From NCBI RefSeq assembly GCF_003725545.1, contig NZ_RJLN01000009.1, forward strand, positions 1-64,000: a stretch of 64,000 nucleotides of DNA, written 5' to 3'. The translations under genes were made by a program, and so were the position numbers. Below, piece after piece: positions 34,970-59,871 of the stretch. The notes beneath the pieces are model-generated. The model searched no databases. It saw nothing but the letters and a program-made list of their open reading frames with translations, and was not told the origin of the DNA. The stretch's first letter is position 1, and every line of letters begins with the position of its first letter. The DNA comes from Micromonospora solifontis. Its GTDB lineage: Bacteria > Actinomycetota > Actinomycetes > Mycobacteriales > Micromonosporaceae.

Positions 34970-34973
<4 letters not shown>
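30147..34973 (+). CDS. type I polyketide synthase module (KS-AT-KR-ACP)
   Basis: About 1608 residues, start ATG overlapping the previous stop (ATGA). An N-terminal coiled-coil (LKRAYLQLERMQRQLAE) is the docking helix. KS has C208 in DTACSSS; AT has S656 in GHSFGEY. The AT specificity motif reads TSSH where HAFH (malonyl) or YASH (methylmalonyl) is expected, so the extender is uncertain. A pseudo-KR half is followed by KR (from about 1192, Y1354 in GYAAAN) without the LDD motif. ACP has S1521 in LDSLMAVEL. No DH or ER, so the unit should keep a beta-hydroxyl. That hydroxyl is the expected site of later lactone closure. The protein ends with an acidic LSDEQ tail. Confidence 0.92.
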
Positions 34974-38365
<3,392 letters not shown>

Positions 38366-38381
38366 ACGGTAGGTGAGGCAC

Positions 38382-44112: not shown

Positions 44113-47100
44113 GTGACCACCACCGATCTGGGCAGCCTGTCCGCGGCGCAGAAGCGCGCGCTGCTCGCCGAACGGCTGCGGCAGCGCAAGCAGCGGCGGG
44201 AGTTCCCCGCCTCCTTCTCCCAGCAGCGGCTCTGGTTCCTGGAACAGCTGGCACCGGGCAGCGCCGCGTACAACATCCCCGGGGCGGTCCGCATCCACGG
44301 CCCGCTGGACCTCGCGGTGTGGCGACGCAGCTGCGTCGAGATCACCCGGCGGCACGAGGCGCTGCGGACCACCTTCACCGAGGTCGACGGTGAGCCCCGG
44401 CAGGTGATCAACCCGACCGGCGAGCCGGAGTTCACCGTGGTCGACTGCGCCCACCTGAGCGGCCCTGCGGGTGAGACGGGCATCCAGGGCCTGGCCCGCG
44501 AGGAGTTCGCCCGCCCGTTCGACCTGGCCAACGGGCCGCTGCTGCGGGTCAAGTTCCTCCGGCTCGGCCCGGAGGAGCACGTGCTCCTGTTGACCATGCA
44601 CCACATCGCGGCCGACCTCTGGTCGATGTCGGTGGCCATCGCCGAGCTGGTGGAGCTCTACGGGGCCTTCGCGGCCGGCCGGGCGTCGACCCTGCCGGAG
44701 CTGCCGATCCAGTACGTCGACTACACCGTCTGGCAGCGGCGGCGGCTGGCCGGCGACGCCCTCGACGCCGACCTGGCGTACTGGCGGGAGAGGCTGGCCG
44801 GCGCGCCCGCCGCGCTGGAACTGCCCACCGACCGGCCGCGCCCGGCGGTGCAGAGCACCCGGGGCGGCTCCCGCCCCTTCGCCCTGCCCGAGCCGGTGAT
44901 GACCCGGCTGCGCGAGCTGAGCCAGCGGGAGGGCGCCACCCCTTTCATGACCCTGCTGGCGGCCTTCCAGGTGCTGCTGCACCGCTACACCCGCGAGGAC
45001 GACATCGTGGTCGGCGTGCCGGTGGCCAACCGGAACCGCCCCGAGATCGAACGGCTGGTCGGCTACTTCGTCAACACTCTGGCGCTGCGTACCGACCTGT
45101 CCGGCGCGCCGAGCTTCCGGGAACTGGTCGGCCGGGTCCGGCAGACCTGCCTGGGCGCGTTCGCCCACCAGGAGCTGCCGTTCGAGCGGCTGGTCGAGGA
45201 ACTGGCCCCCCGCCGGGACCTGTCCCGCTCGCCCATCTTCCAGGTGCACTTCATCTTCCAGAACATCCCGATGCCCGAGTTCGACGTGGCCGGGCTCCGG
45301 CTGGAACCGGTCGGCGTGGAGAGCGTGACCGCCCGGTTCGACCTGGAGCTGCAGGTCTTCGACCGGCCGGACGGGCTGACCGGCTGGTTCGAGTACAACA
45401 GGGACCTCTTCGATCCGGCCACCGTCGAGCGGATGTCGGCACACCTGGCCCGGCTGGTGGCGAACCTGCTCGCCGAGCCGGACCGGCGGATCGACCAGGT
45501 GTCGATGCTCGACGCGGACGAGGAGCGGGAGCTGCGGCTGCGCTGGAACGACACCCGCCGGGACTGGCCGGCGCCGGTGACCGTGCCGCAGCGCTTCGCC
45601 GATCGGGCCGCCGCCACCCCGGACGCCCTCGCGCTGCGGACCGACCGGGAGAGCCTGACCTACGCCGAACTGGACCGGCGCTCGACCCGGCTGGCCCGGC
45701 GGCTGCGCCGGCTCGGGGTGGCGCGGGAGGCGTTGGTCGGCATCTGCCTGGACCGCTCCGCCGACATGGTCGTGGCGATGCTCGCGGTGCTCAAGAGCGG
45801 CGGCGCCTACGTGCCGCTGGACCCGGGCTTCCCGCCGGAACGGATCGCCTTCATGCTGGCCGACTCCGGCCTGTCCGTGCTGCTCACCAGCAGCGACGTG
45901 CTGGCCGGCCTGGGTGGGGTCCAGGCCGAGCCGCTCTGCCTGGACCTGCTCGCCGACGAATTGGCCGACGAGCCGGTCGAGGCGCTGCCCCTCGACGTCG
46001 ACCCGGACGACCTGGCGTACGTCATCTACACCTCCGGCTCCACGGGCCGGCCCAAGGGCGTGCAGGTCACGCACGGCGCGCTGGGGAACTTCCTGCTCGC
46101 CATGGCCGAGCGTCCCGGCATCGCCCCCCGCGACGTGCTGCTGGCGGTCACCACCCTCTCCTTCGACATCGCCGGGCTGGAACTGCTCCTGCCGCTGGTG
46201 GAGGGGGCCAGCGTGGTCGTGGTCGGCCGGCAGGTCGCCGCCGACGGCGAGCGGCTGGCCGCCGCGCTGGACCGTGCCGCCGCCACCGTGATGCAGGCGA
46301 CCCCCTCCACCTGGCGGATGCTGTTGGACGCCGGCTGGGCCGGAAGCCCTGGGTTGCGGGCGCTGGCCGGCGGGGAGGCGCTGCCGGCCGAGCTGGCCCA
46401 GCGGCTGCTGCCCCGCTGCGCCGAGGTGTGGAACATGTACGGCCCAACCGAGACGACCATCTGGTCGGCGGTGGCGAAGGTCGACCACGGGCCGATCCGC
46501 CTGGGCGAGCCGATCGCCAACACCGAGCTGCACGTGCTCGACGGCAGCGGCGCGCCGGTGCCGCTCGGCGTCCCCGGCGAGCTGCACATCGGCGGCGCCG
46601 GCCTGGCGCGTGGCTACCTGGACCGGCCCGAGCTGACCGCCGAGCGGTTCGTCCGGCATCCGTCCCCGATCGGGCTGGGTGACCGGCTCTACCGCACCGG
46701 CGACCTGGTCCGCCGCAGCGCCGACGGGAGCATCGAGTTCCTCGGCCGGCTGGACCACCAGGTGAAGCTGCGCGGCTTCCGGATCGAGCTGGGCGAGATC
46801 GAGTCGGTGTTGGAGCGGCAACCGCAGGTCAGCCAGGCGGTGGTGACCGTACGCGAGGACACTCCCGGCGACCAGCGGCTGGTGGCGTACGTGGTGGCGG
46901 ACCCCGCCGCGGACGGCGAGCCGGCCGCCGACCGGCCGCACGAGCTGGACCAGTGGCGTGACGTCTGGGACGCCGCGTACGACGTCGAGGAGCCCGGCGA
47001 GGTCGACCCGACGCTCGACACCCGGGGCTGGAACAGCAGCTACACCGGCGGGCCGATCCCGATCTACGAGATGCGGGGCTGGGCCGAGGCCACCGCCGAG

Positions 47101-48684
47101 CGGATCCTGGAGACCGCGCCCCGCTCGGTGTTGGAGATCGGCTGCGGCACCGGGCTGATCCTCTACCGGGTCGCCCCGCGGGTGCCGCACTACTGGGCCA
47201 CCGACATCTCGGCGGTCGCCCTGGCCCGGCTGCGCGCCGACGCCACCGCACCGGCCCGCGGGCTGCCCGGGGTGCAGCTGTTCGGCTGCGCGGCCGACGA
47301 GCTGGACACCCTGCCCGACCAGCTCTTCGACGTGATCGTGCTCAACTCGGTGGCGCAGTACTTCCCCGACGAGCGCTATCTGCTGCGGGTGATCGAGGGT
47401 GCGCTGCCGCGCCTGGCGCCGGGCGGTTCGCTCTTTCTCGGCGACATCCGCAGCCTGCCGCTGCTGGAGCCCTTCCACGTCTCCGTGCAGCTGTCCCGGG
47501 CCGAGCCGGAGGCCACCGCCGAGCAGCTGCGCGAGCGGGTCCGCCGGGCCCTCGCCGACGACCAGGAACTGGTCTTCGACCCGGGCTTCTTCACCGCGCT
47601 GCCGGCCCGCTTCCCGCAGCTCGCCCAGGTGCGGGTGATGCCGAAGCTCGGCGAGGTGAGCAACGAGCTGACCCGGTTCCGCTACGATGTGCGGCTCACC
47701 GTGGCGGGCGCGTCGACGGTCGGTGGGCGGCCCGCCGACGTCGACTGGTGCGACTGGACCGACGAGGGGCTCTCGCTGGCCGGGCTCCGGGACCGGCTGT
47801 CCGCGCAGCGTCCGGCGCTGCTCGCCCTCCGGGGCGTACCCAACGCCCGGACCGACCGCTGGGCACGCGCCGCCACGGCGCTGGCCGCGGCCGGCGGCAC
47901 GGCCGACGAACTGCGGGCCGAACCGGACGTCGGAGCGGCCCCGACCGCCGTCGAACCGGAGCAGCTGCGCCGGCTCGCCGACGAGACCGGCTACCGGATC
48001 GACCTGGACTGGTCCGGGCACGGGCCGGCTGGCGAACTGGCCGTGCTCCTGCGCCGGCTGGCCGCCGACGGACAGCCGGAACGGCCCCTGCCCCCGCTGG
48101 TCGAACCACCCGGCGAGGAGCCGCGCTGGGACCACTACGTCAACGACCCGCTCGGCCGGCGGACCCGGCGGCTGCTGCCCCGGCTCCAGGCCGCCCTCGG
48201 CGAGCACCTGCCCGACTACATGGTGCCGGCGACCTACGTGTTCCTGGACGCGTTGCCGCTCACCCCTAACAACAAGGTCGACCGGAAGGCCCTGCCCGCG
48301 CCGGAGGGCGGCCGCCGCCAGGTGCGGTCCGCGTACGTGCCGCCGCGCAACCCGGTGGAGGAGGTGATCGCCGGCATCTGGGCGGAGACCCTCGGCGTCG
48401 ACCGCGTGGGTGTGCTCGACGACTTCTTCGCCCTCGGCGGGCACTCGCTGCTCAGCACCCGGATGGTGGCCCGGGTCCGGGAGGCGTTCGGGGTAGACGT
48501 GCCGCTGCACCGGATCTTCAGCGACCCGACGGTGGCCGGGCTCGCCCGCGCCCTGACCGCCGACCCGGCCCAGCGGGCGGTCATCGACAAGACCGCCGAG
48601 CTGCTGATCCGGCTCAGCGGCCTCTCCGACGACGAGGTACAGCAGGCGCTCGACGCCGGCGACGGGAGGAACCCGCATGAGTAG
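44113..48684 (+). CDS. NRPS module C-A-NMT-PCP, predicted N-methylglycine
   Basis: 1523 residues. The N-terminal docking helix is LSAAQKRALLAERLRQRK. The C domain motif reads HHIAADL (from H163), with Leu in place of the last Gly. The A domain has YTSGSTGRPKGV (from Y639), and the code read from FDIAGLELL, MQATPS, LAGGEAL and NMYGPTETTIW is DILQLGMIWK, the glycine code. An S-adenosylmethionine-dependent methyltransferase (VLEIGCGTG from about 1006) is inserted between A8 and A10, the position of N-methyltransferases. PCP has S1445. The unit is therefore sarcosine, as in rakicidins. A tail with LSDDE follows. Its GTG start lies after a 76-base gap and GAGGA (44099-44103); its stop overlaps the next gene by eight bases. 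Confidence 0.92.
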   Translation: MTTTDLGSLSAAQKRALLAERLRQRKQRREFPASFSQQRLWFLEQLAPGSAAYNIPGAVRIHGPLDLAVWRRSCVEITRRHEALRTTFTEVDGEPRQVINPTGEPEFTVVDCAHLSGPAGETGIQGLAREEFARPFDLANGPLLRVKFLRLGPEEHVLLLTMHHIAADLWSMSVAIAELVELYGAFAAGRASTLPELPIQYVDYTVWQRRRLAGDALDADLAYWRERLAGAPAALELPTDRPRPAVQSTRGGSRPFALPEPVMTRLRELSQREGATPFMTLLAAFQVLLHRYTREDDIVVGVPVANRNRPEIERLVGYFVNTLALRTDLSGAPSFRELVGRVRQTCLGAFAHQELPFERLVEELAPRRDLSRSPIFQVHFIFQNIPMPEFDVAGLRLEPVGVESVTARFDLELQVFDRPDGLTGWFEYNRDLFDPATVERMSAHLARLVANLLAEPDRRIDQVSMLDADEERELRLRWNDTRRDWPAPVTVPQRFADRAAATPDALALRTDRESLTYAELDRRSTRLARRLRRLGVAREALVGICLDRSADMVVAMLAVLKSGGAYVPLDPGFPPERIAFMLADSGLSVLLTSSDVLAGLGGVQAEPLCLDLLADELADEPVEALPLDVDPDDLAYVIYTSGSTGRPKGVQVTHGALGNFLLAMAERPGIAPRDVLLAVTTLSFDIAGLELLLPLVEGASVVVVGRQVAADGERLAAALDRAAATVMQATPSTWRMLLDAGWAGSPGLRALAGGEALPAELAQRLLPRCAEVWNMYGPTETTIWSAVAKVDHGPIRLGEPIANTELHVLDGSGAPVPLGVPGELHIGGAGLARGYLDRPELTAERFVRHPSPIGLGDRLYRTGDLVRRSADGSIEFLGRLDHQVKLRGFRIELGEIESVLERQPQVSQAVVTVREDTPGDQRLVAYVVADPAADGEPAADRPHELDQWRDVWDAAYDVEEPGEVDPTLDTRGWNSSYTGGPIPIYEMRGWAEATAERILETAPRSVLEIGCGTGLILYRVAPRVPHYWATDISAVALARLRADATAPARGLPGVQLFGCAADELDTLPDQLFDVIVLNSVAQYFPDERYLLRVIEGALPRLAPGGSLFLGDIRSLPLLEPFHVSVQLSRAEPEATAEQLRERVRRALADDQELVFDPGFFTALPARFPQLAQVRVMPKLGEVSNELTRFRYDVRLTVAGASTVGGRPADVDWCDWTDEGLSLAGLRDRLSAQRPALLALRGVPNARTDRWARAATALAAAGGTADELRAEPDVGAAPTAVEPEQLRRLADETGYRIDLDWSGHGPAGELAVLLRRLAADGQPERPLPPLVEPPGEEPRWDHYVNDPLGRRTRRLLPRLQAALGEHLPDYMVPATYVFLDALPLTPNNKVDRKALPAPEGGRRQVRSAYVPPRNPVEEVIAGIWAETLGVDRVGVLDDFFALGGHSLLSTRMVARVREAFGVDVPLHRIFSDPTVAGLARALTADPAQRAVIDKTAELLIRLSGLSDDEVQQALDAGDGRNPHE

Positions 48685-51600
48685 GCAGTTCGCCCTCTCC
48701 GCGCAGCGGCTGGCGCTGCTGAGCAATCTGCTCAAGGAGGAGGGTATCGACCGGGCCCCGGCGCGCACCGTGCCGCCCCGCCCGGACGGTGACGCCCCGG
48801 TTCCGCTGACCTTCTCGCAGAGCCGGATCTGGTTCCTCGACCGGTTCGCCGCGCACACCTCCGCGTACGTGATCTCCACCGCGATGCGGGTGCACGGCGA
48901 CTTCCGTACCGACCTGTTCGCGCGGGCCTGCGCCGAGGTGGTCCGCCGGCACGAGTCGCTGCGCACCGTCTTCCTCGAGCTGGACGGCCGCCCGCACCAG
49001 CAGGTCCGCGCCGACCTGCCGCCGGAGGTCCGGACCGAGGACGTGCCGGGCGTGGCGCCCGAGGCGGTCGACGCCGAGCTGCGTCGCCGCGAGGAGGAGC
49101 TGATCAACCAGCCCTTCGACCTGGCCACCGGGCCGCTGCTGCGGGTCCGGCTGCTGCGCTTCGGTCCACAGTTGACCGGGGTGCTGCTCAACCTGCACCA
49201 CATCGTCTCCGACCGCTGGTCGATGGGGGTGCTGCTGCGCGAGCTGATCGCCGGTTACCGGTCCCTGCTCACCGGGCTGCCCGGCGACCTGCCCGAGCTG
49301 CCCGTGCAGTACGCCGACTTCGCCTACTGGCAGCAGCAGCCGGCCGCCCGGCAGGCGTGGGCGGCGGACCTGGCGTACTGGACCGAGCAACTCGGCGGGG
49401 CCCCGGCCGAACTCGCCCTGGTCGGCGACCGGCCCCGGCCGCGGGAGAAGAGCTACCGGGGCGACTCGGTGCCGGTGGAGATCCCGCCCGCCTTGGTGGC
49501 CCCGCTGCGCGAGCTGTGCCGGCAGGAGAACGTCACCCTGTTCATGCTGCTGGAGGCAGCGTTCGCGACGCTGCTGCACCGGCTCACCGGCGACGAGGAG
49601 ATCGTGGTCGGCTCGCCGGTGGCCAACCGGCGGCTGGTCGAGCTGGAACCGCTGATCGGGCTGTTCATGAACACCGTGGCGCTCCGCACCGACCTGCGCG
49701 GCGACCCGTCTTTCCGGGAGCTGCTGCGCCGGGTCGGCGCGGTCTGCCTGGCCGCCTATGACCACCAGGGCATCCCGTTCGAGCGGCTGGTCGAGCAGTT
49801 GCAGCCGGAACGGTCGGTGGCCAGCACCCCGGTGTTCCAGGTGCTCTTCTCGTACCAGAACGTGCCCTTCCCGGCCTGGCGCGACGGGCCGGTCCGGGTC
49901 GAGCCGGTCTCGCTGGACGCCCGGAAGGCCGAGTTCGACCTGCTGCTGGACCTCTTCGAGGACGGCGACACGATCTGGGGGCGGCTGGAGTACAGCACCG
50001 ACCTCTACGACCAGGCGACCGCCGAGCGCAACGTGCGGATGCTCCACCGGCTGCTGCGCGGACTGCTCGCCCGTCCGGACACCCCGATCAGCGCGCTGCC
50101 GCTGGTCGGCCCGGTGGAACGGGACGAACTGCTGGCCCTGGCCACCGGCCCGGCCGCAGCGGAGCGGCCCCTCGTCGTCGACGCCTTCGCCGCGGCCGTT
50201 CGCCGCGACCCGACCGCCCCGGCGGTCCGGTTCGGCTCGCGTACGGTCAGCTACGGCGAGCTGAACGCCCTGGTCGACGCCCTGGCCGGGCGGCTCCGGG
50301 CGGCCGGCGTGCGCCCGGGCGCCCGGGTCGCCGTCCACCTGGAGCGCAGCGTCGAGCTGGTGGCCGCGCCGCTGGCGGTCTGGCGGGCCGGCGGAGTGCT
50401 CGTCCCCGTCGACCCGGCCCTGCCGGCCGACCAGGCCACCGCGCTGTTGACCGCGACCGACGTGGCGATCCTGCTCACCCGGCGCCCGGAGATCGGCGGC
50501 CTGCCCTGGGCCGGGCCGACCTGCCTGGTGGACGACCCGGCCGCCGACCCCGAGGGCGTGCCCGCCGCCACCGACGCCCCACCCGTGGCCCCGGCCGGTG
50601 CCGACCCGGCCTATGTCAGCTGCCCGCCGGAGCCGACCGACCGGCCCCGAGCCAGCGTGCACAGCCACGCGGCGCTGCGCGACCGGCTGCACTGGCTGCG
50701 GGACAAAGCCGGGCTCACCGCCGAGGACCGGGTGCTCCAGCACGCCCCCGCCGCGGCGCCCGCGGCCGTCTGGGAGCTGTGCGCCCCGCTGCTGGCCGGC
50801 GCGGCCGTGGTGCTGGCTCGACCCGGCGGGCACCCCGACGCCCGGCACCTGGTGAGCCTGATCCGGGCGGAGCGGGTGAGCGTGGCCTGCTTCCGGCCCG
50901 ACCAGCTGGCCGAGCTGCTCGACCAGCGCGGGGTCGAGCGCTGCACTGCGCTGCGGCACGTGTTCTGCGCCGGGGCGCCGCTGCGGCCGGAGCTGGTGGC
51001 CCGGTTCGCCGGGCGCTCGCCGGCCACCCTGCACCACCTGCTCGTGCCGGCGGACGTCGCCGCGCCGGTCACCGCCCACCGCTGCGCCGCCGCCGATCCC
51101 ACCGCCGCGGAGAACGCCGAGTCGGCCGCGTCCGCCGAGCAGACGGGCGCCGCGGTCGGCGGCGGCATGAGGTACCAGCCGCCGGTGCCGGTGGGCCGGC
51201 CGGTCGCCGGGACCCGGGTGCACGTGCTGGACCGGGCCGGCCAGCCCGTCCCGGTCGGCGTGGCCGGGGAGCTGTACGTGGCGCCGGTGCCGGCCGGCGT
51301 GCCCGTGACGGACCTGGTGCCCGACCCGTTCGACGACCGGCCGGACGCCCGGCTGCTGCGTACCGGGGAGCGGGGCCGGGTGCGGCCCGACGGGGTGATC
51401 GAGCATCTCGGGCACCGGGACCGGTGGGTACGGCTGCGCGGCTTCCCGGTCGACCTGGACATGGTCGAGGCCACTCTGGCCGGGCACCCCGGCATCACCG
51501 GGGCCGCCGTGGCGATCCGGGGCGAGGCCGGTGCCGACCGGCTCGTGGCGTACCTCGCCGGGGACCCGGTCCCGGCCGCCACGGAGCTGACCACGTTCCT

Positions 51601-53377
51601 GAAGGAGCGGCTGCCGGACTACCTGGTCCCGGCGGCCTGGGTCGAGCTGCCGCGGCTGCCCCGGACGTCGGCCGGCGCGATCGACCGGACCGCCCTGCCC
51701 GAGCCGGAGCCCGAGCCGGACGGCGGTGCGCGGCCGACCGGGGAGCTGGCCCCCCGGGACGAGATTGAGCGGGCGATCGCCGACCTCTGGGCGGAACTGC
51801 TCGGGGTCGCCACCGTCGGGCTGGCCGACAACTTCTTCGCCCTGGGCGGGCACTCCCTGCTCGCCACCCGGCTCGCGGCGCGGATCGAGGACCGGTTCGG
51901 CGTCCGGGTGCCGTTGCGCCACCTCTTCGACAACCCGACCGTCGGCGCGCTGGCCGAACTGGTCCGGCAGGCGGGAACCGGCCCGGCCGCCGCGGCCGCC
52001 CCGATCACCCCGGTCGACCGGGGCCCGTTCCTGCCGCTCTCGTTCGCCCAGGAACACCTGATCCGGCATCACCCGCGCGGACCGCTGGACCCGATCCACA
52101 ACGTGGTGACCGCCGTGCGGCTGACCGGGCCGTTGGACGGGCCGGCGCTGCGCCGGAGCCTGGACGACATCGTGGCCCGGCACGAGGCGCTGCGTACCCG
52201 CATCGTTGCCGGCCCTGACGGGCCGGCACAGCGCGTCGAGGCACCCGACGGCTGGCCGCTGGAGACGGTCGACCTGGGCGGCGGCGACCCGGCCGACCGG
52301 CTGCGTGCCCTGGTCGAGGAGCAGGGGCGGCGCCCGTTCCGGATCGACGCCGAGCCGATGGTGCGCGGCCTGCTGGCCCGGCTGGCGCACGACGAGCACG
52401 CCCTCGTGCTCACCATCCACCACCTGGTCACCGACAACTGGTCGTACGGGGTGCTGGTCCGCGACCTGACCGAGTACTACACCGCCCACACCACCGGCCG
52501 CGCCCCGGCGCTGCCGGTGCTGGACGTGCAGTACCCCGACGTGGCGGCCTGGCAGCGGCGGCAACTCGTCGCCGGGGCGCTGGACGCCCACCTGGAGCAC
52601 TGGCGGCACACCCTGCGCGACCTGCCCCCGGCGCTGACCCTGACGCCGCCGCCCGGGGACACCGGGACCGGCGACGGCCCGGGCGCCACCGGTCCCACCC
52701 GCGCCTTCCGGGTGGACCCGGCGGTCACCGGGCAGCTGCGCCGGCTCGCGCAGGCGGAGGGGGCCAGCCTCTTCATGGTGCTGCTGGCCGCCTACCAGCT
52801 CCTGCTCGCCGCCTTCTCTGGGCGGGACGACATCCCGGTCGGCTTCCCGGAGGCGGGACGGGAGCGGCCGGAGACGGCCGACCTGATCGGCTGGTTCGTC
52901 AACCCGCTGGTGGTCCGGGCGGACCTGACCGCCGCCCCGACGTTCCGCGAGCTGCTCGGCCAGGTCCGCGACCGGACCCTGTCCGCGTACGCGCACCGGG
53001 CGGCGCCGCTGTGGCTGGCCACGGGGAGCGGGGCCGCCGCCGACCCGACCCGGGTGCTGTTCAACCTGCTCAACGCCGAGGTGCCCGAGCTGGCGCTGCC
53101 CGGGCTGCGGGTGCGCTCCCTGGAGATCGGCGACGACTACGTCTTCTCCGAGGTGCTGGGCAGCAACCTCCAGCCGGCGGAGGCCGACCTCGCCCTCATC
53201 ATGCGGGAGCAGGGGACGGGACTGCTGGGCACCTGGCTGCACGCCGCCGACGTCTTCCCCGGCCGGTCCCTGGACCTGATGATGCGGCGCTGGGAGTGGC
53301 TGCTGGGCCAGCTCGCCGCCGATCCGGCCACCGCGCTGGACACCCTCCGCGCCCGGTTGGGGCAGGTGAACCCGTGA
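48677..53377 (+). CDS. NRPS C-A*-PCP-C with a dead adenylation domain and terminal condensation domain
   Basis: 1566 residues, GGAGGA at 48664-48669. C1 has HHIVSDR (from H174). The A domain keeps its fold but has lost its catalytic motifs: A3 reads SCPPEPTDRPRA in place of SGSTGxPKG, A5 lacks YGPTE, A7 reads RTGERGR instead of YRTGDL, and the A10 lysine is gone (PRTSAGAIDR). It cannot be expected to make an aminoacyl-AMP. PCP is intact (S1060), so loading in trans is required; the carrier-less A protein at 55891 is the obvious donor. The terminal C domain (from about 1113, HHLVTDN at H1248) has no following carrier and there is no TE domain, so it is the likely release and macrocyclisation domain. 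Confidence 0.92.
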   Translation: MSRQFALSAQRLALLSNLLKEEGIDRAPARTVPPRPDGDAPVPLTFSQSRIWFLDRFAAHTSAYVISTAMRVHGDFRTDLFARACAEVVRRHESLRTVFLELDGRPHQQVRADLPPEVRTEDVPGVAPEAVDAELRRREEELINQPFDLATGPLLRVRLLRFGPQLTGVLLNLHHIVSDRWSMGVLLRELIAGYRSLLTGLPGDLPELPVQYADFAYWQQQPAARQAWAADLAYWTEQLGGAPAELALVGDRPRPREKSYRGDSVPVEIPPALVAPLRELCRQENVTLFMLLEAAFATLLHRLTGDEEIVVGSPVANRRLVELEPLIGLFMNTVALRTDLRGDPSFRELLRRVGAVCLAAYDHQGIPFERLVEQLQPERSVASTPVFQVLFSYQNVPFPAWRDGPVRVEPVSLDARKAEFDLLLDLFEDGDTIWGRLEYSTDLYDQATAERNVRMLHRLLRGLLARPDTPISALPLVGPVERDELLALATGPAAAERPLVVDAFAAAVRRDPTAPAVRFGSRTVSYGELNALVDALAGRLRAAGVRPGARVAVHLERSVELVAAPLAVWRAGGVLVPVDPALPADQATALLTATDVAILLTRRPEIGGLPWAGPTCLVDDPAADPEGVPAATDAPPVAPAGADPAYVSCPPEPTDRPRASVHSHAALRDRLHWLRDKAGLTAEDRVLQHAPAAAPAAVWELCAPLLAGAAVVLARPGGHPDARHLVSLIRAERVSVACFRPDQLAELLDQRGVERCTALRHVFCAGAPLRPELVARFAGRSPATLHHLLVPADVAAPVTAHRCAAADPTAAENAESAASAEQTGAAVGGGMRYQPPVPVGRPVAGTRVHVLDRAGQPVPVGVAGELYVAPVPAGVPVTDLVPDPFDDRPDARLLRTGERGRVRPDGVIEHLGHRDRWVRLRGFPVDLDMVEATLAGHPGITGAAVAIRGEAGADRLVAYLAGDPVPAATELTTFLKERLPDYLVPAAWVELPRLPRTSAGAIDRTALPEPEPEPDGGARPTGELAPRDEIERAIADLWAELLGVATVGLADNFFALGGHSLLATRLAARIEDRFGVRVPLRHLFDNPTVGALAELVRQAGTGPAAAAAPITPVDRGPFLPLSFAQEHLIRHHPRGPLDPIHNVVTAVRLTGPLDGPALRRSLDDIVARHEALRTRIVAGPDGPAQRVEAPDGWPLETVDLGGGDPADRLRALVEEQGRRPFRIDAEPMVRGLLARLAHDEHALVLTIHHLVTDNWSYGVLVRDLTEYYTAHTTGRAPALPVLDVQYPDVAAWQRRQLVAGALDAHLEHWRHTLRDLPPALTLTPPPGDTGTGDGPGATGPTRAFRVDPAVTGQLRRLAQAEGASLFMVLLAAYQLLLAAFSGRDDIPVGFPEAGRERPETADLIGWFVNPLVVRADLTAAPTFRELLGQVRDRTLSAYAHRAAPLWLATGSGAAADPTRVLFNLLNAEVPELALPGLRVRSLEIGDDYVFSEVLGSNLQPAEADLALIMREQGTGLLGTWLHAADVFPGRSLDLMMRRWEWLLGQLAADPATALDTLRARLGQVNP

Positions 53378-55056
53378 GCCTCTTCGCCTACCTGCTGCGC
53401 TACCGCCGGGGCGCGTTCCTGCTGGCCATCGCCGCCGGCATCATCAGCGGCGGCACCGGCGCGGCTTTCATCGCCATGGTCAACCAGGCCCTGGCCGCCG
53501 ACGGCCGGCCCGCGTCCCGGCTGATCTGGGGCTACCTGGCGCTCTGCCTGGCCACCCTGTTCACCCGGTTCATCTCCCAGGCCCTGCTCTACCGGCTTTC
53601 CCAGGGGGCCATCCAGCAGCTGCGCCGCCGCCTGGTCGACGGCATCCTCGGCGCCCCGCTGCGGGCCGTCGAGAAGGTCGGCACGGCCCGGCTCAACTCG
53701 GCGCTCTCCGATGACGTGGTGGTCATCGCCGACGCGCTGCCCGGCCTGCCGGGCATCTGCTCGGGTGCCGCGTTCGTGCTGGTGGCCATCGCGTACCTGG
53801 TGATCGTCTCCCCGGTGGTGGCGCTGGCCACCGGCGGCACGGTCGTCGTCGGCGTGCTGCTCTACCTGCTCATGTCGGCCGCCGGGCTGGGCGCGCTCAA
53901 GGCCGCCCGCGAGGAGCAGGACGTCCTGTTCGGTCACTTCCGCTCGGTGACCGAGGGCATCAAGGAACTCAAACTGCACCGGGATCGGCGGTACGCCCTG
54001 ATCGAGCGGGACCTGGCGACCACCGCCACCGCCTACCGCCGGCACAGCATCGTCGGCCTCTCCGTCTACGAGGGCGCCACCGGCGGCGGGCAGGCGGTCT
54101 TCTTCACCTTCATCGGCCTGCTGCTCTTCGCCTTCCCCGCCTGGTTCGCGCTCACCGACCGCACCCTCGCGGCCTGCGTGCTGATCCTGCTCTTCGCCGT
54201 CTCCAGCCTCCAGGGCGTGCTCGTCTGGTTCCCCGCCCTGGGCCGGGCCGCGGTGGCCCTGACCACCATCGAGGAGCGGCTGGCGTCGCTGGCGCCCGGG
54301 GACGGCGAACCGGCCCCGGGCGCCACCGCCCGGGCGGCCACCGGCGGCGGCTTCGCCGGCTGGCGCCGCATCGAGTTCCGGGGGGTTAGCCACGTCTACC
54401 CCGGCCCGAAGGGCGAGGAGTTTGTGCTCGGGCCGCTGGACCTCGATGTCCGCCGGGGCGAGATCCTCTTCGTCGTCGGCTCCAACGGCAGCGGCAAGAC
54501 CACCCTGGCCAAGGTGCTGACCAGCCTCTACCCGCCCGAGCAGGGCGTGCTCCGGGTGGACGGCGTGGCGGTCACCGCGGCCAACCGGGAGGACTACCGC
54601 AACCTCTTCTCCGCGGTGTTCTCCGACTTCCACCTCTTCGACAGCCTGCTCGGGCTGCCGGCGCCCGACCGGACCGCGAAGGCCGAGCACTACCTGCGCC
54701 GCCTGCAACTGAACCACAAGGTACGGATCACCGGGGACCGGTTCTCCACCACCGCGCTCTCGCTCGGGCAGCGCAAGCGGCTGGCCCTGCTCGTGGCGTA
54801 CCTGGAGGACCGCGACTGCTACCTGTTCGACGAGTGGGCGGCCGACCAGGACCCGGTCTTCAAGGACTTCTTCTACCGGGAGCTGCTGCCGGAACTGCGG
54901 GACCGGGACAAGGCGGTGGTGGTGATCAGCCACGACGACCAGTACTTCCACGCCGCCGACCGGCTCGTCCGGCTCGAATACGGCCAGCTCAGCGAAGGGG
55001 GGACCCCCGATGGACCGGCGATGGCTGGCCGGCCGGGAGTTGGACCCGCGCGCTGA
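53374..55056 (+). CDS. cyclic-peptide-type ABC exporter (SyrD/PvdE-like, fused TM and ATPase)
   Basis: 560 residues, GTG start overlapping the NRPS stop (GTGA). Six transmembrane helices (about 1-300) are followed by an ATP-binding domain with Walker A GSNGSGKTT, signature LSLGQRKRL and Walker B CYLFDEWAADQDP. The DEWAADQDP form and the LFSAVFSDFHLF segment are typical of the cyclic peptide export family that includes SyrD and PvdE. It would export the finished lipopeptide or an intermediate across the inner membrane and may provide self-resistance. It overlaps the following thioesterase gene by 47 bases, a strong sign of co-translation. Confidence 0.9.
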   Translation: MSLFAYLLRYRRGAFLLAIAAGIISGGTGAAFIAMVNQALAADGRPASRLIWGYLALCLATLFTRFISQALLYRLSQGAIQQLRRRLVDGILGAPLRAVEKVGTARLNSALSDDVVVIADALPGLPGICSGAAFVLVAIAYLVIVSPVVALATGGTVVVGVLLYLLMSAAGLGALKAAREEQDVLFGHFRSVTEGIKELKLHRDRRYALIERDLATTATAYRRHSIVGLSVYEGATGGGQAVFFTFIGLLLFAFPAWFALTDRTLAACVLILLFAVSSLQGVLVWFPALGRAAVALTTIEERLASLAPGDGEPAPGATARAATGGGFAGWRRIEFRGVSHVYPGPKGEEFVLGPLDLDVRRGEILFVVGSNGSGKTTLAKVLTSLYPPEQGVLRVDGVAVTAANREDYRNLFSAVFSDFHLFDSLLGLPAPDRTAKAEHYLRRLQLNHKVRITGDRFSTTALSLGQRKRLALLVAYLEDRDCYLFDEWAADQDPVFKDFFYRELLPELRDRDKAVVVISHDDQYFHAADRLVRLEYGQLSEGGTPDGPAMAGRPGVGPAR

Positions 55057-55831
55057 CCTCCGGCTCTTCTGCCTGCCCTACGCCGGCGGCGGCGCGGCGG
55101 TCTACCGGGGCTGGCCGGAGCTGGCGCCGCGTGGCATGCAGGTGCTGCCGCTGGAACTGCCCGGCCGGGGCACCCGGCTGCGCGAGGCGCCGGTGTGGCG
55201 GCTCGCCCCGCTGATCCGCTCGCTGGCCGACGCGCTGTGCGACGCCTTCGACCGGCCGTACGCCCTCTTCGGGCACAGCATGGGCGGGCTGCTCGCCTTC
55301 GAACTGGCCCGGACGCTGCGCCGCCGCCCGGTCCGGCAGCCCGCGCACGTCTTCCTCTCCGCCGCCGCCGCGCCCAGCACCCCGCCGACCCCGCCGCTGC
55401 TGCACTGCGGCACGGACGACGAGATCCGGCAGCGCCTGGCGGAGCTGGGTGGCACGCCGCCGGACCTGCTGGACGACGTCGAGCTGATGCGACTGATGCT
55501 GCCCGTGCTGCGCGCCGACTTCGCAGTGCTGGAGACGTACGAGCACCGCAGCGAGCCGCCGCTGTCGACGCCGTTGACCGTGCTCGGCGGCCGGTCCGAC
55601 CGGGTCGTGCCGCCGCGGGCGCTGGACGGCTGGCGCCAGCACACGTCGGCCGGATCCCGGCTGTGCCTCTTCCCCGGCGGCCACTTCTTCCTGCACGGCC
55701 CCACCGCGGCCGACGTGCTGGCCACCGTGGCACGGGACCTGGGCGGCACGGCCGCCACCGGGCCCGGCGCAGCGACCCACCGCACCGCCACCGGTCTCTA
55801 CCTGCGCCATACCACCGACCGAACCCGATGA
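55010..55831 (+). CDS. type II thioesterase
   Basis: 273 residues of alpha/beta-hydrolase fold with the nucleophile motif GHSMGG near residue 89, an Asp in LGGRSDRVVPP and the catalytic His in FPGGHFFLHG. The opening LFCLPYAGGGA is the standard start of editing thioesterases (GrsT/RifR type). These hydrolyse misloaded or stalled acyl groups from carrier proteins and restore assembly-line throughput; they do not normally make the macrocycle. It is out of frame with, and overlaps, the exporter gene, with AAGGGGGG upstream of its ATG. The C-terminus carries about 25 residues beyond the fold. Confidence 0.9.
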   Translation: MDRRWLAGRELDPRADLRLFCLPYAGGGAAVYRGWPELAPRGMQVLPLELPGRGTRLREAPVWRLAPLIRSLADALCDAFDRPYALFGHSMGGLLAFELARTLRRRPVRQPAHVFLSAAAAPSTPPTPPLLHCGTDDEIRQRLAELGGTPPDLLDDVELMRLMLPVLRADFAVLETYEHRSEPPLSTPLTVLGGRSDRVVPPRALDGWRQHTSAGSRLCLFPGGHFFLHGPTAADVLATVARDLGGTAATGPGAATHRTATGLYLRHTTDRTR

Positions 55832-55890
55832 GCACCGCCCGCCCCGGTCCGGCCCAGCACGGACCGCACCGGATTCCCAGGAGGCCAGCC

Positions 55891-58785
55891 ATGACCACGC
55901 TCGATTCGGTGCCCAGCCAGCCGCCGGACGAGGCCGACATCGAGCCGTTCGCACTGCTCAGCCCTCGGGACCGGAGGATCGTGCCGGCCGGGGCGCTGGA
56001 CGGCTACCCGCTGCCGGAGGTCCAGGCGGACCTGGTCGAGGAGGACGGCGCCTTCACGAGGGTCGACCTGGACGGGCGGCGGGTCACCGACCCGGCCCCG
56101 TTCTCGCCGGAACGGTTCGCCGAGGCGGTCCGGGCGGTGGTGCGCACGCACGAACTGCTCCGCACCTCCGTCGACCCGTCCGGCGGCACCGAGCCGTGCC
56201 ACCTGGTGCACCCGGACGCCGCGATCCCGCTGGCCGTGCACGACCACCGCAGCGTGGACGAGGCCAAACGGGAGGCGATGTCGGCCGCGCTGCTGGACGC
56301 GGAGCGGGTCACCCCGTTCGACCCGGCCGCCCCGGGGCCGCTGCGGCTGACCGTGATCCTGGAGACCGAGCAGACCTGGACGCTGCTCGTCGCCGCGCCC
56401 CGGGCCCTGACGTCCGTGGCGGACCCGGCCGGCATCCTCGCCGAACTGCTCCGCGCCTACCGGGCCGGCGGATCCGCCGCGGTGGCCACCGGCACCCGGC
56501 ACGCGCCGTGCGTGGCCGCCGCGCTCGACGCAGCCGCCGACTTCGACGGCGCCGACCACTGGACTGGCCTGCTCACCGGCACCTCCTGCGCCCTGCCGGG
56601 CGGCTGGGGCGGCGCGCCGGGCAGCACCGAGCTGACCGTGGACCTCACCGACCTGTCCGCCGGGCTGCGCGCGCTCGCCGCCGCGGCGGGGGCGTCGCCG
56701 GCGACCGTGCTGCTCGCCGCCCACCAGACCGTGCTCCGCGTGCTCGGCGCCGAACCGGGCGGGTACACCGAGGCGACCCTGACCCCGGACGGACGCCCGG
56801 ACCTGGCCGGCACCGGCTGCGAGCGGCTGCTGCACCGGGTCACCCTGCCGCTGCCCCTGGTCACCGGCGCGGCGACCTGGCGCGGGCTGGTCGCCCGGGT
56901 CGCGGAGGCGGAGCGGGTCGCCTGGACGCACCGGCACGCGTACCGGCCGCCGGCCGGCCCGGTCGACCGGAGTCAGCACGCCCACTTCGCCTGGGACACC
57001 GCCGCCGACTTGCCCGTGGCGGCCGTCCCCGGCCTGCCCACCGACGAGGCGGCGTACGGCCTGCGGGTGACCGCCGGCCCTGACCGGTTGCGGCTGCGCG
57101 CCGCCGGGGCGACCGTCAACGCCAGCCATGCCCGGCGACTGGCCGCCCACTACCGGGAGGTGCTGGCGGCGATGGCCGCCGACCCGGACGGTGACGCCGA
57201 GGGCACCCACCTGCCGGCCGGCGAGCGCCGCGCGGTGCTGGTCGACTGGGCGGTCGCCGGGACCGTGGACCGGGGCGAGGTGACCGCCGTCGACCTGATC
57301 CGGGCCCAGGCGCGGTCCACACCGGACCGGGTCGCGGTGCGCGTCGGCGACGTCCGGCTCACCTACCGGGACTTGATCCGGCGGGCCGACCGGCTCACCC
57401 ACCACCTGCTCGACCATGGCGCCGGGCCGGGCACCCTGGTCGGCGTTTGCCTCGGCCGGACCCCGGATCTCGTGCCCGCGCTGCTCGCCGCCTGGCAGAC
57501 CGGCGCCGGCTACCTGCCGTTGGATCCCGAACTGCCCCCGGAACGGCTGCGGCACATGCTCGACGCGGCGGACACCCCCGTGGTGGTCACCTCCACCGCG
57601 CAGCAGCCCACCCTCACCGGCCTGTACGACGGCACGCTGGTCCTGGTGGACACCGACGCGGCGGCCATCGCCGCCCGCCCGGACACCCCGGTCGACGTGT
57701 CGGTCCGCCCGTCTGACCTTGCCTACGTCATCTTCACCTCCGGCTCCACCGGCCGGCCCAAGGGGGTGATGGTGGAGCACGCCGGCCTGGTCAACTACCT
57801 GCTCTGGACGGTCGACGCGTACGCCGCCCACGGTCCCGGCGGGGCGCCGGTCTTCTCCTCGATCTCCTTCGACCTGGGCATCCCGAACATCTTCACCCCG
57901 CTGATCACCGGCGAGCCGGTGCACCTGCTGCCCGAGCCGCTGGACACCGCCGACCTCGGCGCGCACCTGCTCACCGGCGCCCCGTACAGCTTCATCAAGA
58001 TGACCCCCGGCCACCTGGACCTGCTCACCTGGCAGCTCACCGCCGAGCAGGCCCGGGGCCTGGCCGGCATCGTCATCGCGGCGGGTGACTCGTTCACCCG
58101 GGCGCTCGCCGCCCGCTGGCTGGAGTTGGCCGGGCGGCACGGCACCAAGGTGGCCACCGAGTACGGCCCGACCGAGATCACCATCGGCAACTCGGGGCAG
58201 CGGATCAGCGAACCGCCCGCCACCGAACTCGTGCCGCTCGGCGCGCCCATCGTGAACACCACCATGTACGTACTGACCGAGCGACTGGATCCGGTGCCGG
58301 TTGGAGTGCCGGGGGAGGTGTACATCGGCGGCCTCGGGGTGGCCCGGGGCTACCTCGGGCGCCCGGACCTGACCGCGGAGCGGTTCCTGCGCGACCCGTA
58401 CGGCCCTCCGGGCAGCCGGCTGTACCGCAGCGGTGACCTGGCCCGGTGGCTGCCCGACGGCACGCTGGAGTTCCTCGGCCGGATCGACAACCAGGTCAAG
58501 ATCCGCGGTTACCGGGTGGAACTCGGCGAGATCCAGGCCCGGCTCACCGCCCATCCGCACGTCCGCGACGCCGTGGTGATCGCCCGCGAGCCCAGCCCCG
58601 GCGAGAAGCGGCTGGTCGCGTACCTGGTGCTCGCCGCCGGGCAGCCGCTGGACCCGGCCGCGCTGCGCGCCCACCTCACCGCGGACCTGCCCGACTACAT
58701 GATCCCCGCGGCCTTCGTCGCCATCGACCACATTCCGCTCACCACCAACGGGAAGGTGGACGCCCGCGCGTTGCCCACCCGGTGA
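55891..58785 (+). CDS. trans-acting adenylation protein: dead C domain plus active A domain, no carrier
   Basis: 964 residues. The first 420 residues align in layout with a condensation domain, but the HHxxxDG site reads APRALTSVAD (about 170-180), so it is inactive. The A domain is complete: FTSGSTGRPKGV (from F615), EYGPTE, YRSGDL and the A10 lysine in NGKVDARAL. The code read from FDLGIPNIF, IKMTPG, VIAAGDSF and EYGPTEITIG is DLPKIAEIGK, nearest to asparagine codes such as DLTKLGEVGK (6 of 10). No PCP follows. It probably loads Asn or hydroxy-Asn onto the PCP of the NRPS at 48677. AGGAGG (55879-55884) supports the ATG at 55891; an in-frame ATG at 55828 overlaps the thioesterase stop. Confidence 0.88.
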   Translation: MTTLDSVPSQPPDEADIEPFALLSPRDRRIVPAGALDGYPLPEVQADLVEEDGAFTRVDLDGRRVTDPAPFSPERFAEAVRAVVRTHELLRTSVDPSGGTEPCHLVHPDAAIPLAVHDHRSVDEAKREAMSAALLDAERVTPFDPAAPGPLRLTVILETEQTWTLLVAAPRALTSVADPAGILAELLRAYRAGGSAAVATGTRHAPCVAAALDAAADFDGADHWTGLLTGTSCALPGGWGGAPGSTELTVDLTDLSAGLRALAAAAGASPATVLLAAHQTVLRVLGAEPGGYTEATLTPDGRPDLAGTGCERLLHRVTLPLPLVTGAATWRGLVARVAEAERVAWTHRHAYRPPAGPVDRSQHAHFAWDTAADLPVAAVPGLPTDEAAYGLRVTAGPDRLRLRAAGATVNASHARRLAAHYREVLAAMAADPDGDAEGTHLPAGERRAVLVDWAVAGTVDRGEVTAVDLIRAQARSTPDRVAVRVGDVRLTYRDLIRRADRLTHHLLDHGAGPGTLVGVCLGRTPDLVPALLAAWQTGAGYLPLDPELPPERLRHMLDAADTPVVVTSTAQQPTLTGLYDGTLVLVDTDAAAIAARPDTPVDVSVRPSDLAYVIFTSGSTGRPKGVMVEHAGLVNYLLWTVDAYAAHGPGGAPVFSSISFDLGIPNIFTPLITGEPVHLLPEPLDTADLGAHLLTGAPYSFIKMTPGHLDLLTWQLTAEQARGLAGIVIAAGDSFTRALAARWLELAGRHGTKVATEYGPTEITIGNSGQRISEPPATELVPLGAPIVNTTMYVLTERLDPVPVGVPGEVYIGGLGVARGYLGRPDLTAERFLRDPYGPPGSRLYRSGDLARWLPDGTLEFLGRIDNQVKIRGYRVELGEIQARLTAHPHVRDAVVIAREPSPGEKRLVAYLVLAAGQPLDPAALRAHLTADLPDYMIPAAFVAIDHIPLTTNGKVDARALPTR

Positions 58786-58884: not shown

Positions 58885-59871
58885 ATGACCAAGCTCGACC
58901 AGTCGACCGGTGCCGCACAGGGGCTGGCGCTGGAGCTGACCGACGACGAACGTGCCGCCCTGCGGGAGTTGGCCGAGGAGCTCGTCGCCGCCCCGCCGGC
59001 GCTGCTGGACGACCTGACCTGGGTGGCTCAGGCCCGCCGGGCCAGCTGCCGGCTGCCGCTGCGGCTGCGGCAGACCCTGCGCGCCTTCCGCGACGACGCC
59101 GGTCCCACCGGCTCGCTGATCCTCCGTGGACTCCCGTTCGGCGAGGACGACCTGCCGGACACGCCGACCGTACGCGAGTCGGTGGAGCGGGCGACCACGG
59201 TGCCCGCCGTGGTGGCCGTCCTGATCGGCCTGCACCTCGGAGAGGTGATCGCCTACCGGAACGAGAAGACCGGCGCGCTGGTGCAGAACGTCGTGCCGGT
59301 GCCCGGTCTGGAGGGGACGCAGAGCAACGCCGGGTCGGTGCCGCTGGAGTTCCACGTGGAGAACGCCTTCCACCCGCAGCGCCCTGACTACGTCGGCCTG
59401 CTCTGCCTGCGCAACGACCACGCCAAGCGGGCCGGCACCCTGGTCACCTGTATCCGGCAGGCGCTGCCGCTGCTGGAGGAGACCGACCGGAAGGTGCTGC
59501 GCGAGCCACGGTTCATCACCGCCCCGCCGCCCTCGTTTCACCACGGCGACCGGACCATGCCGCACGCGGTGCTGGTTGGCAGCCCCGAGGACCCGAACAT
59601 CTGCCTGGACCTGAACGCCACCACGGCGTTGGACGACGAGGCCCGTGAGGTGATGGCCCGGCTCAAGCAGGTCCTCACCGACGTGTCCACCGCACTGGTG
59701 CTGCAGTCGGGCTCGATGGCCATCATCGACAACCGGCTGGTGCTGCACGGCCGCACCGAGTTCACCCCCCGGTTCGACGGGCGGGACCGCTGGCTGCACC
59801 GGGTCTACGTGCACCTGGACAACCGCCGTACCCGGGTGCACCGGCAGGATGCCCGGCCGGTACTCAACTGA
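58885..59871 (+). CDS. AsnO/VioC-type Fe(II)/2-oxoglutarate amino acid beta-hydroxylase
   Basis: 328 residues of the clavaminate synthase-like family. The iron-binding HxE pair is H157/E159 in EFHVENAF, the Glu variant that marks AsnO, VioC and related enzymes, with the distal His H288 in VLHGRTEF and the 2-oxoglutarate-binding Arg in DRWLHRVYV. AsnO hydroxylates free L-asparagine at C3 for the calcium-dependent antibiotic; here the neighbouring Asn-like A protein suggests the same product, 3-hydroxyasparagine. Whether it acts on the free amino acid or on a carrier-bound form is not decided by sequence. It is the last gene of the cluster, 99 bases after the A protein, with GAGAGGA upstream. 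Confidence 0.88.
   Translation: MTKLDQSTGAAQGLALELTDDERAALRELAEELVAAPPALLDDLTWVAQARRASCRLPLRLRQTLRAFRDDAGPTGSLILRGLPFGEDDLPDTPTVRESVERATTVPAVVAVLIGLHLGEVIAYRNEKTGALVQNVVPVPGLEGTQSNAGSVPLEFHVENAFHPQRPDYVGLLCLRNDHAKRAGTLVTCIRQALPLLEETDRKVLREPRFITAPPPSFHHGDRTMPHAVLVGSPEDPNICLDLNATTALDDEAREVMARLKQVLTDVSTALVLQSGSMAIIDNRLVLHGRTEFTPRFDGRDRWLHRVYVHLDNRRTRVHRQDARPVLN

What the first reader, a model, noticed from the sequence alone, without database searches (positions are those of the whole stretch)
48677..58785. Split module: dead in-line A domain complemented by a carrier-less A protein with a dead C domain
The NRPS at 48677 keeps the fold of an A domain but has lost A3, A5, A7 and A10 catalytic residues, while its PCP is intact. 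The protein at 55891 is the mirror image: dead C (no HHxxxDG), complete A, no PCP. Together they make one functional C-A-PCP module. This looks like domain decay after gene duplication or recombination, and it provides a route for loading a pre-hydroxylated amino acid in trans.
Basis: partly seen in the sequence, partly recalled or inferred. Interest (0 to 1): 0.85.

Follow-up and report, generated by a model that had tools for sequence, protein, structure and literature searches.

The report
Split rakicidin module with borrowed adenylation enzyme
In a bacterial gene cluster for a rakicidin-type peptide, the built-in enzyme part that should select the last amino acid is dead, and a separate imported enzyme most likely selects and loads that amino acid (hydroxy-asparagine) instead; this is a variant of a trick already known from a few other peptide antibiotics.

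Summary
The NRPS at 48677-53377 is C-A*-T-C: its A domain keeps the fold but has lost A3, A4, A5, A7, A8 and A10 residues, while its carrier is intact. The protein at 55891-58785 is C*-A: dead C, complete A with an Asn-like code, no carrier. The cluster has the gene order of rakicidin (rak) clusters; the two proteins correspond to RakH and RakN, and 58885 to RakO (AsnO-like). Comparative tests support complementation in trans. The in-line A is dead in 8 of 8 loci with rakN and intact in 9 of 9 related last modules without it; three of the eight belong to reported rakicidin producers. The two A domains are not copies of each other: RakH A* belongs with the cluster's serine-type RakD A domains, RakN with free A domains of five other clusters, all with a RakO homologue nearby. 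Free A plus RakO may be a transferable hydroxy-Asn loading cassette. Dead in-line A domains rescued in trans are known (kutzneride, albicidin), so this is a new variant of a known kind. Loading in trans, and hydroxylation before loading, remain inferred.

The parts
48677..53377 (+). RakH homologue, NRPS C-A*-T-C (1566 aa)
   Evidence: Pfam; rak gene tables; homologous loci
48800..50134 (+). RakH C1, live-looking condensation domain (HHIVSDRW)
50186..51706 (+). RakH A*, full-length but catalytically dead adenylation domain (A3, A4, A5, A7, A8, A10 residues lost); A-domain fold kept in a model (pLDDT 79)
51773..51964 (+). RakH T, intact carrier domain (LGGHSL), the proposed acceptor
52031..53347 (+). 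RakH terminal C domain (HHLVTDNW), probable release domain
55891..58785 (+). RakN homologue, C*-A without carrier (964 aa)
55891..57255 (+). RakN C*, dead condensation domain of the xHxxx(E/D)GW subtype; catalytic His replaced by Arg
57301..58755 (+). RakN A, complete adenylation domain, code DLPKIAEIGK (Asn-like)
58885..59871 (+). RakO homologue, Fe(II)/2-oxoglutarate oxygenase, AsnO-like
34970..38365 (+). RakD homologue, C-A-T with Ser-type code DVWHISLIDK; its A domain is close to the nearest live paralogues of RakH A*
44113..48684 (+). RakG homologue, C-A-MT-T (upstream module)
53377..55056 (+). ABC transporter between rakH and rakN
55010..55831 (+). Type II thioesterase (RakL-like)
   Evidence: table in PMC5073741

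Best explanation
The last module of this rakicidin-type assembly line is split. RakH supplies the condensation domain, the carrier and the terminal release C domain, but its own A domain is a decayed serine-type domain that cannot make an aminoacyl adenylate. RakN, a free C*-A protein without a carrier, activates asparagine or 3-hydroxyasparagine and loads it in trans on the RakH carrier. RakO hydroxylates the asparagine, most likely as the free amino acid before activation. RakH C1 then joins it to the chain, and the terminal C domain releases the product. Shown by sequence: the dead A*, the intact T, the complete RakN A, the dead C*, and the co-occurrence. Inferred: loading in trans, substrate, timing of hydroxylation, release.
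For: The in-line A is dead in 8 of 8 rakN-bearing loci (K517 and D235 lost in all 8) and intact in 9 of 9 related last modules without rakN. RakN code is DLPKIAEIGK in 7 of 7 readable copies. RakO is present in 7 of 8 rak loci; in the eighth, L001, the contig ends just after rakN. Three loci with a dead in-line A belong to reported rakicidin producers: M. chalcea DSM 43026 and S. lilacinus NRRL B-1968 (PMC12916061, passages) and Streptomyces sp. MWW064 = NBRC 110611 (PMC5073741, section 14). The seven carriers found in the cluster all lie in the large synthases, and of the three in NRPS modules only RakH T lacks a live A. Free A domains of the RakN clade occur in five other clusters, all with a RakO homologue on the stretches held. 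Three of these (G353, G287, G201) hold an A-T-C-T protein whose last module has no A, and two of the three (G353, G287) also a dead in-line A. A separate case, G227, has a dead in-line A (C-A*-T) beside a RakO homologue and an A-T protein with code DLTKMGEVGK.
Against: No biochemistry. The co-occurrence is largely one lineage (shared descent), so 8 against 9 are not independent events. L004 could be checked for only about 2.2 kb beyond its TEII gene. In the rak paper sections read, Asn incorporation is assigned to RakH by collinearity. In one free-A genome (G944) no NRPS with an A-less module was found in about 76 kb. In G353 and G287 the A-T-C-T gene lies about 18-20 kb from the free A, so membership of one cluster is inferred. 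dN/dS does not single out the dead domains cleanly: the live RakH T (71 codons) is as high or higher in most pairs.
Confidence: 0.85

Rival explanations
1. RakN activates Asn (or hydroxy-Asn) for another carrier, such as a free one elsewhere in the genome, and the residue is shuttled to RakH by a transferase or by the thioesterase, as in syringomycin.
For: The window genome has 32 carrier-domain matches in all, and SyrB1/SyrC shuttling is known (PMC8949500, section 14). In L044 and L053 a carrier-thioesterase protein lies next to the free A.
Against: The seven carriers found in this cluster all lie in the large synthases. No aminoacyl transferase was seen among the cluster genes annotated; genes upstream of 21067 were annotated only in part.
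Confidence: 0.08
2. RakH A* is still active with an unusual mechanism, and RakN makes something else.
For: A* keeps full length, frame and fold. Its dN/dS is 0.37-0.62 in five pairs within Micromonospora, so it is not free of selection. The three Streptomyces copies keep much of A3, plus E327, D413 and R428.
Against: The A10 lysine and the D235 substrate anchor are gone in 8 of 8 loci, and the A3 loop and YGPTE are gone in the five Micromonospora copies. No usable specificity code remains.
Confidence: 0.03
3. Hydroxylation takes place on the carrier: RakN loads plain Asn and RakO acts on Asn bound to the RakH T, as I recall for Glu in kutzneride (KtzO/KtzP).
For: KtzN-mediated transfer of Glu with a non-functional A* is the closest described case (PMC10587159 passage). 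In G227 a RakO homologue goes with a DLTKMGEVGK A domain, close to the Asn code I recall, so RakO homologues do not need the RakN-type pocket.
Against: RakO is closest to AsnO (phmmer 262 bits against 165 for the next family), and AsnO acts on free Asn (recalled). Within the RakN clade and its sister the code DLPKIAE(I/V)GK goes with RakO in 9 of 9 genomes tested, but this may be mere descent.
Confidence: 0.25

Closest known systems
Rakicidin (rak) biosynthetic gene clusters of Micromonospora DSW705 and Streptomyces MWW064
   Same: Gene order and protein sizes match (DSW705 2944, 1608, 1123, 1883, 1517, 1563, 570, 287, 955, 329, 771 aa; window 3027, 1608, 1131, 1887, 1523, 1566, 559, 273, 964, 328, 787 aa). 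MWW064 itself is locus L016.
   Different: No difference in kind. In the sections read the published pathway gives Asn condensation to RakH and gives RakN no role; figures are not held.
KtzN and the non-functional A* of kutzneride synthetase
   Same: A stand-alone A protein loads the carrier of a module whose own A is non-functional (PMC10587159 passage); a hydroxylase of the AsnO/VioC kind is recalled.
   Different: Substrate Glu; I read that passage as describing a truncated A*, whereas RakH A* is full length. Another review passage gives KtzN a different role (PMC4147253). Whether KtzN has a C* domain was not tested.
Albicidin Alb04 and cystobactamid stand-alone Asn modules
   Same: Inactive in-line A complemented in trans by a stand-alone Asn-activating protein (PMC8949500, section 14).
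   Different: Those are A-T with an alpha-ANH-like domain between A and T; RakN has no carrier and has a dead C in front.
Ramoplanin and enduracidin stand-alone modules
   Same: Trans-complementation of an inactive A by a stand-alone protein with an N-terminal extension of about 300 aa, shown to be needed in ramoplanin (PMC8949500, section 14).
   Different: They carry a T domain, and their extension is described as without homology; RakN's is a recognisable dead C domain.
WS9326A Cal22/Cal23 trans A domains
   Same: A trans-acting A domain most active on Asn, essential in vivo (PMC7539972 passages).
   Different: A-PCP didomains serving an A-less module; no dead in-line A and no C* mentioned in the passages seen.

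Membership tests
Rakicidin-type (rak) cluster | Gene order: acyl-ligase/PKS, PKS, C-A-T (Ser code), PKS with KR before DH, C-A-MT-T, C-A-T-C, ABC, TEII, RakN, RakO | tested here: met
   homologous loci
Rakicidin-type (rak) cluster | Product is a 4-amino-2,4-pentadienoate depsipeptide with sarcosine and 3-hydroxy-Asn | not testable with these tools
   No metabolite data for the window strain
Dead in-line A rescued by a trans A (KtzN/Alb04 kind) | In-line A lacks catalytic core residues | tested here: met
   8 of 8 loci
Dead in-line A rescued by a trans A (KtzN/Alb04 kind) | A separate complete A domain in the same cluster with a code fitting the residue | tested here: met
   RakN DLPKIAEIGK, 7 of 7 readable copies, (Asn reading of such codes recalled)
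Dead in-line A rescued by a trans A (KtzN/Alb04 kind) | The free A loads the in-line carrier | not testable with these tools
   needs an enzyme assay
Stand-alone A-T modules (SyrB1, Alb04, Cal23) | Own carrier domain on the free protein | tested here: not met
   no PP-binding match in 55891-58785
AsnO-type asparagine oxygenases | TauD family, HxE...H iron site, closest to AsnO among solved structures | tested here: met
   (2og5, E 9e-77); motif in 12 of 12 homologues
AsnO-type asparagine oxygenases | Acts on free L-Asn | not testable with these tools
   needs an enzyme assay
Copy of RakH made by gene duplication (for RakN) | RakN A and RakH A are sisters | tested here: not met
   trees place them in separate, fully supported groups

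The most novel reading that the evidence does not exclude
Free A plus AsnO is a mobile loading cassette for hydroxy-asparagine. A C-A didomain cut out of an ordinary hydroxy-Asn module lost its carrier, kept its hydroxylase as partner, and spread into unrelated assembly lines (rak; the A-T-C-T type), where it took over loading and let the resident A domain decay (rak, G353, G287) or be absent (G353, G287, G201). The dead A* and the dead C* remain as docking scaffolds, while the C* is being whittled down from a full domain (RakN) to part of its C-lobe (L044, L046, L050) to nothing (L053). Lines with AsnO-type hydroxylation may be prone to this: G227 has an A-T donor with another code, a dead in-line A and a RakO homologue side by side.
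Probability: 0.4. Interest if true: 0.65.

Novelty: new variant of a known kind. Interest (0 to 1): 0.52.

Why it matters
It proposes a function for RakN, for which the sections read of two rak cluster papers give none, and it corrects the collinear reading of the last rakicidin module. Tools that read substrate codes from in-line A domains cannot predict this residue: PMC5073741 has X there, and PMC5075396 reports a Glu prediction for m6 of S. celluloflavus NRRL B-2493, whose in-line A is dead here (L032). If the cassette reading holds, hydroxy-Asn could be brought into other assembly lines with two genes, and the series of decaying domains would let one test which parts of an NRPS module are needed only as scaffold.

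Tried and rejected
Gene duplication of RakH as the source of RakN: rejected by the trees. A single loss of function for all dead in-line A domains: left open (held as one clade, AU p 0.08). RakD domains as one clade that excludes the dead ones: also not rejected (AU p 0.14), so the order of duplication and splitting is open. One origin of RakN within rak clusters: also open; the two Streptomyces RakN A domains group with the non-rak free A domains rather than with the Micromonospora ones, at 96/72. An MbtH partner in the cluster: none in the window; the two found in the genome lie on other contigs. The structure model of RakN C* was poor (pLDDT 56); it aligns over its length to condensation domains (best E 6e-14) but with TM about 0.4, so I use it only as weak support for the fold class. 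The idea that the I299 code variant is what goes with RakO: weakened by G227, where a RakO homologue lies beside a DLTKMGEVGK A domain. Literature strings of the codes gave no hits. In the listings and passages seen I met no paper that describes RakN as a trans A; two key papers are not held. L054 (G081) has another carrier-less A with a different code (DMPKAGEVGK) outside the RakN clade and was left aside. Of the 39 loci, 25 were left out of the 8 against 9 comparison because they are not related actinobacterial last modules; they are counted. L014 reads with frameshifts in the draft (rakH and rakN each in two frames) and the dead-A line of L047 also reads in two frames; both were used as they stand.

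Full report
What is there. The NRPS frame at 48677-53377 codes for C-A-T-C, and the frame at 55891-58785 for a weakly recognisable C followed by a complete A and no carrier. The start at 55891 has a good ribosome site upstream (aggagg). The surrounding genes are acyl-ligase-ACP-KS-AT-DH-ER-KR-ACP, KS-AT-KR-ACP, C-A-T, KS-AT-KR-DH-ACP, C-A-MT-T, then RakH, ABC transporter, TEII, RakN, an AsnO-like oxygenase and an MMPL transporter. Order and sizes match the tables for the rakicidin clusters of Micromonospora DSW705 and Streptomyces MWW064 (PMC5075396 section 14, PMC5073741 section 14). MWW064's table has no MMPL gene at that place. Those sections, and section 15 of PMC5075396, assign Asn condensation to RakH or module 6, list RakN as 'NRPS' without a role, and print the predicted product as R-C3-C3-Ser-C2-Gly-X.

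How dead is the in-line A. On an alignment with the window's live A domains and those of related loci the window in-line A has lost the A3 loop, D235, YGPTE (LVPAD), D413 (E), R428 (H), K434 (R) and K517 (A). The AlphaFold model of the domain is good (pLDDT 79) and matches solved A domains, GrsA among them (E 7e-43), so the fold is kept. RakN A has every one of these residues and the code DLPKIAEIGK. I recall Asn codes of the form DLTKLGEVGK; no paper string confirmed this.

How dead is the free C. Its place for HHxxxDG reads APRALTSVAD in the window, and the two Streptomyces copies have HR where HH should be. In a tree it groups (100/100) with seven C domains from L043, L044, L045 and L048 that have a single-His xHxxx(E/D)GW motif; RakN has Arg at that His in 5 of 5.

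Natural experiment. Searching 84,980 species genomes with RakH gave 39 loci. Fourteen are related actinobacterial clusters with the same last module: five have rakN (L001, L002, L014, L016, L032) and nine do not (L003, L004, L006, L007, L009, L010, L012, L013, L026). A search of 354 genomes of the window's family found rakN at full score in 5 (1793 bits or more; the next is 916): the window, two that match L001 and L002 (L002 checked by sequence, L001 judged from coordinates), and two new ones, L041 and L042. With these, the in-line A is dead in 8 of 8 rakN loci and intact in 9 of 9 others. As background, of 112 near-complete A domains in L001-L039 plus the window only six RakH ones and three weakly matching AMP-binding proteins show losses at D235, E327, D413 or R428 (K517 unreadable in 35). 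Full-score rakN is rare: in a phylum-wide draw 2 of 396 genomes matched at E 1e-255 and only the window's own at full score; in the genus of G686 (probably Streptomyces) 3 of 392 matched at E 1e-270, none at full score (best 1140 bits, L045); with the free A domain alone 4 of 397 genomes of the order matched at E 1e-185. One of those four, G1143, shows at a contig edge a RakN-type A (DLPKIAEIGK) followed by RakO, TEII and MMPL homologues, probably a ninth rak locus; its in-line A was not examined.

Producers. M. chalcea DSM 43026 (L002) was confirmed to make rakicidins A and B, and rakicidin D was isolated from S. lilacinus NRRL B-1968 (L014) (PMC12916061, passages); MWW064 (L016) makes rakicidin D (PMC5073741). 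All three have a dead in-line A, so another A domain must supply this residue, and RakN is the only further A domain I found in the stretches held.

Where the parts came from. RakN A domains form one clade (100/99) with carrier-less A proteins of five other clusters (L044, L046, L047, L050, L053); the sister is an A domain inside a C-A-T module of another genome (L045) with the same code. Inside that clade the Streptomyces RakN domains lie nearer the non-rak ones (96/72), so more than one transfer is possible. RakH A* groups at 100/100 with RakD-type Ser A domains and one intact in-line A (L003). The Micromonospora dead domains are sisters of the Micromonospora RakD domains (100/97), but AU tests leave the details open. 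So the two halves are not mirror images from one duplication: one is a decayed serine-type paralogue, the other a piece of another NRPS.

The same cassette elsewhere. All five non-rak free-A clusters have a RakO homologue on the stretches held (L046, L050, L053; L067 = G353 and L068 = G287); in G353 and G287 it lies about 18-20 kb from the free A. Twelve of 12 RakO homologues aligned keep the iron site and an Asp that aligns with an Asp of AsnO, which I take to be D241 (recalled). G353, G287 and G201 have an A-T-C-T protein whose last module has no A. G353 and G287 also have a C-T-C-A-T line whose A is degenerate: A3 and A5 gone, K517 replaced in 'SGQVD' and 'GGRVD'. In G944 no such NRPS was found in about 76 kb, and in G323 the contig ends near the free A. 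The free A proteins show C domains in stages of loss: full in RakN, partial C-domain matches in L044, L046 and L050, about 135 residues without a detected C match in L047, none in L053 (starts judged by eye from the first plausible Met).

A further case. G227, picked up only because it holds a RakO homologue (343 bits), has next to it an A-T protein with code DLTKMGEVGK and a C-A*-T protein whose A has lost A3, A5, R428 (P) and K517 (T). Its A-T donor was not placed in the trees.

Substrate and timing. Genomes with code DLPKIAE(I/V)GK have a strong RakO homologue in 9 of 9 cases tested (G207, G172, G944, G353, G287, G323, G201, G1111, at least 362 bits; G1143). Of five genomes whose nearest A domains read DLPKVAEVGK (G254, G994, G686, G143, G335), four have none at E 1e-40 and G335 has a weak one far away (167 bits). 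Nine more genomes had no RakO match, but their codes were not read. This fits a pocket tuned to hydroxy-Asn, but the nine positive genomes belong to one clade (G1143 not placed in a tree), and G227 shows RakO with another code, so it is a lead and not proof.

Selection. In five pairs within Micromonospora, Nei-Gojobori dN/dS is 0.37-0.62 for A* and 0.48-0.66 for RakN C*, against 0.10-0.30 for RakH C1, 0.29-0.45 for the terminal C and 0.21-0.31 for RakN A. But the live RakH T (71 codons) gives 0.23-1.04, so a high ratio alone does not mark a dead domain. In the Streptomyces pair A* is 0.60 and C* 0.70, with C1 0.40, T 0.81, terminal C 0.61 and RakN A 0.34; between the genera (W-L016) A* is 0.93. 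Within Micromonospora both dead domains show about twice the ratio of RakH C1 and RakN A and stay full length and in frame in these copies. dS is biased by the high G+C content, so only the contrast counts.

Comparison with known systems. Trans-complementation of an inactive in-line A is described for albicidin, ramoplanin and enduracidin (PMC8949500, section 14). For kutzneride the non-functional A* is said to be critical for KtzN-mediated transfer of Glu (PMC10587159, passage), though another review passage places KtzN elsewhere (PMC4147253). Trans A domains for Thr and Asn are shown for WS9326A (PMC7539972, passages). RakN differs in having no carrier of its own and a dead C in front, and in belonging to a lineage that travels with an AsnO homologue. 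Hence a new variant of a known kind.

Noticed in passing
52031-53347: RakH ends in a C domain with HHLVTDNW instead of HHxxxDG; HHL(V/A)TDNW is in 14 of 14 related last modules examined (L006, L007 and L026 not examined). No thioesterase domain follows, so it probably releases or cyclises the chain; a 'special condensation domain' (8z0q) is its fourth-best PDB match.
   Followed up: partly
L078:9426-15316 (-), G227: RakO homologue next to an A-T protein (code DLTKMGEVGK) and a C-A*-T protein with a dead A: a further dead in-line A beside an AsnO-type gene.
   Followed up: partly
L079:1-5691, G1143: Contig edge with RakN-type A, RakO, TEII and MMPL homologues, probably another rak-type cluster, in a different family of the same order.
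   Followed up: no
L004:8974-13701: Dactylosporangium MAG cluster with an intact last A domain of code DLTKLGHIGK (Asp-like, recalled) and no rakN or rakO in the 2.2 kb held beyond TEII: possibly an Asp analogue of rakicidin.
   Followed up: no
L003:8728-15117: Actinobacterial MAG with an intact last A domain inside the RakD clade but with an unusual code DAIQLGFVNK; product unknown.
   Followed up: no
L067, L068, L044, L047, L053: A second cluster type that I could not name, with free Asn-type A, RakO homologue, carrier-thioesterase protein (L044, L053), A-T-C-T (A code DAWQCATIDK in three of three) and, in G353 and G287, a C-T-C-A(dead)-T line; L053 also has PALP, ornithine cyclodeaminase and carbamoyltransferase family genes.
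   Followed up: partly
38373-44036: The KR comes before the DH in this PKS, the unusual order already reported for RakEF (PMC5073741).
   Followed up: no
62427-62897 (-): A glyoxalase-family gene that may be a methylmalonyl-CoA epimerase lies next to the cluster; an epimerase homologue is also listed beside rakAB in MWW064, which would fit methylmalonyl extender supply.
   Followed up: no
L043, L045, L048, L074-L076: NRPS lines with C-A-T modules and A domains of code DLPKVAEVGK or DLPKIAEIGK; six of the C domains aligned from L043, L045 and L048 have a single-His xHxxx(E/D)GW motif.
   Followed up: partly
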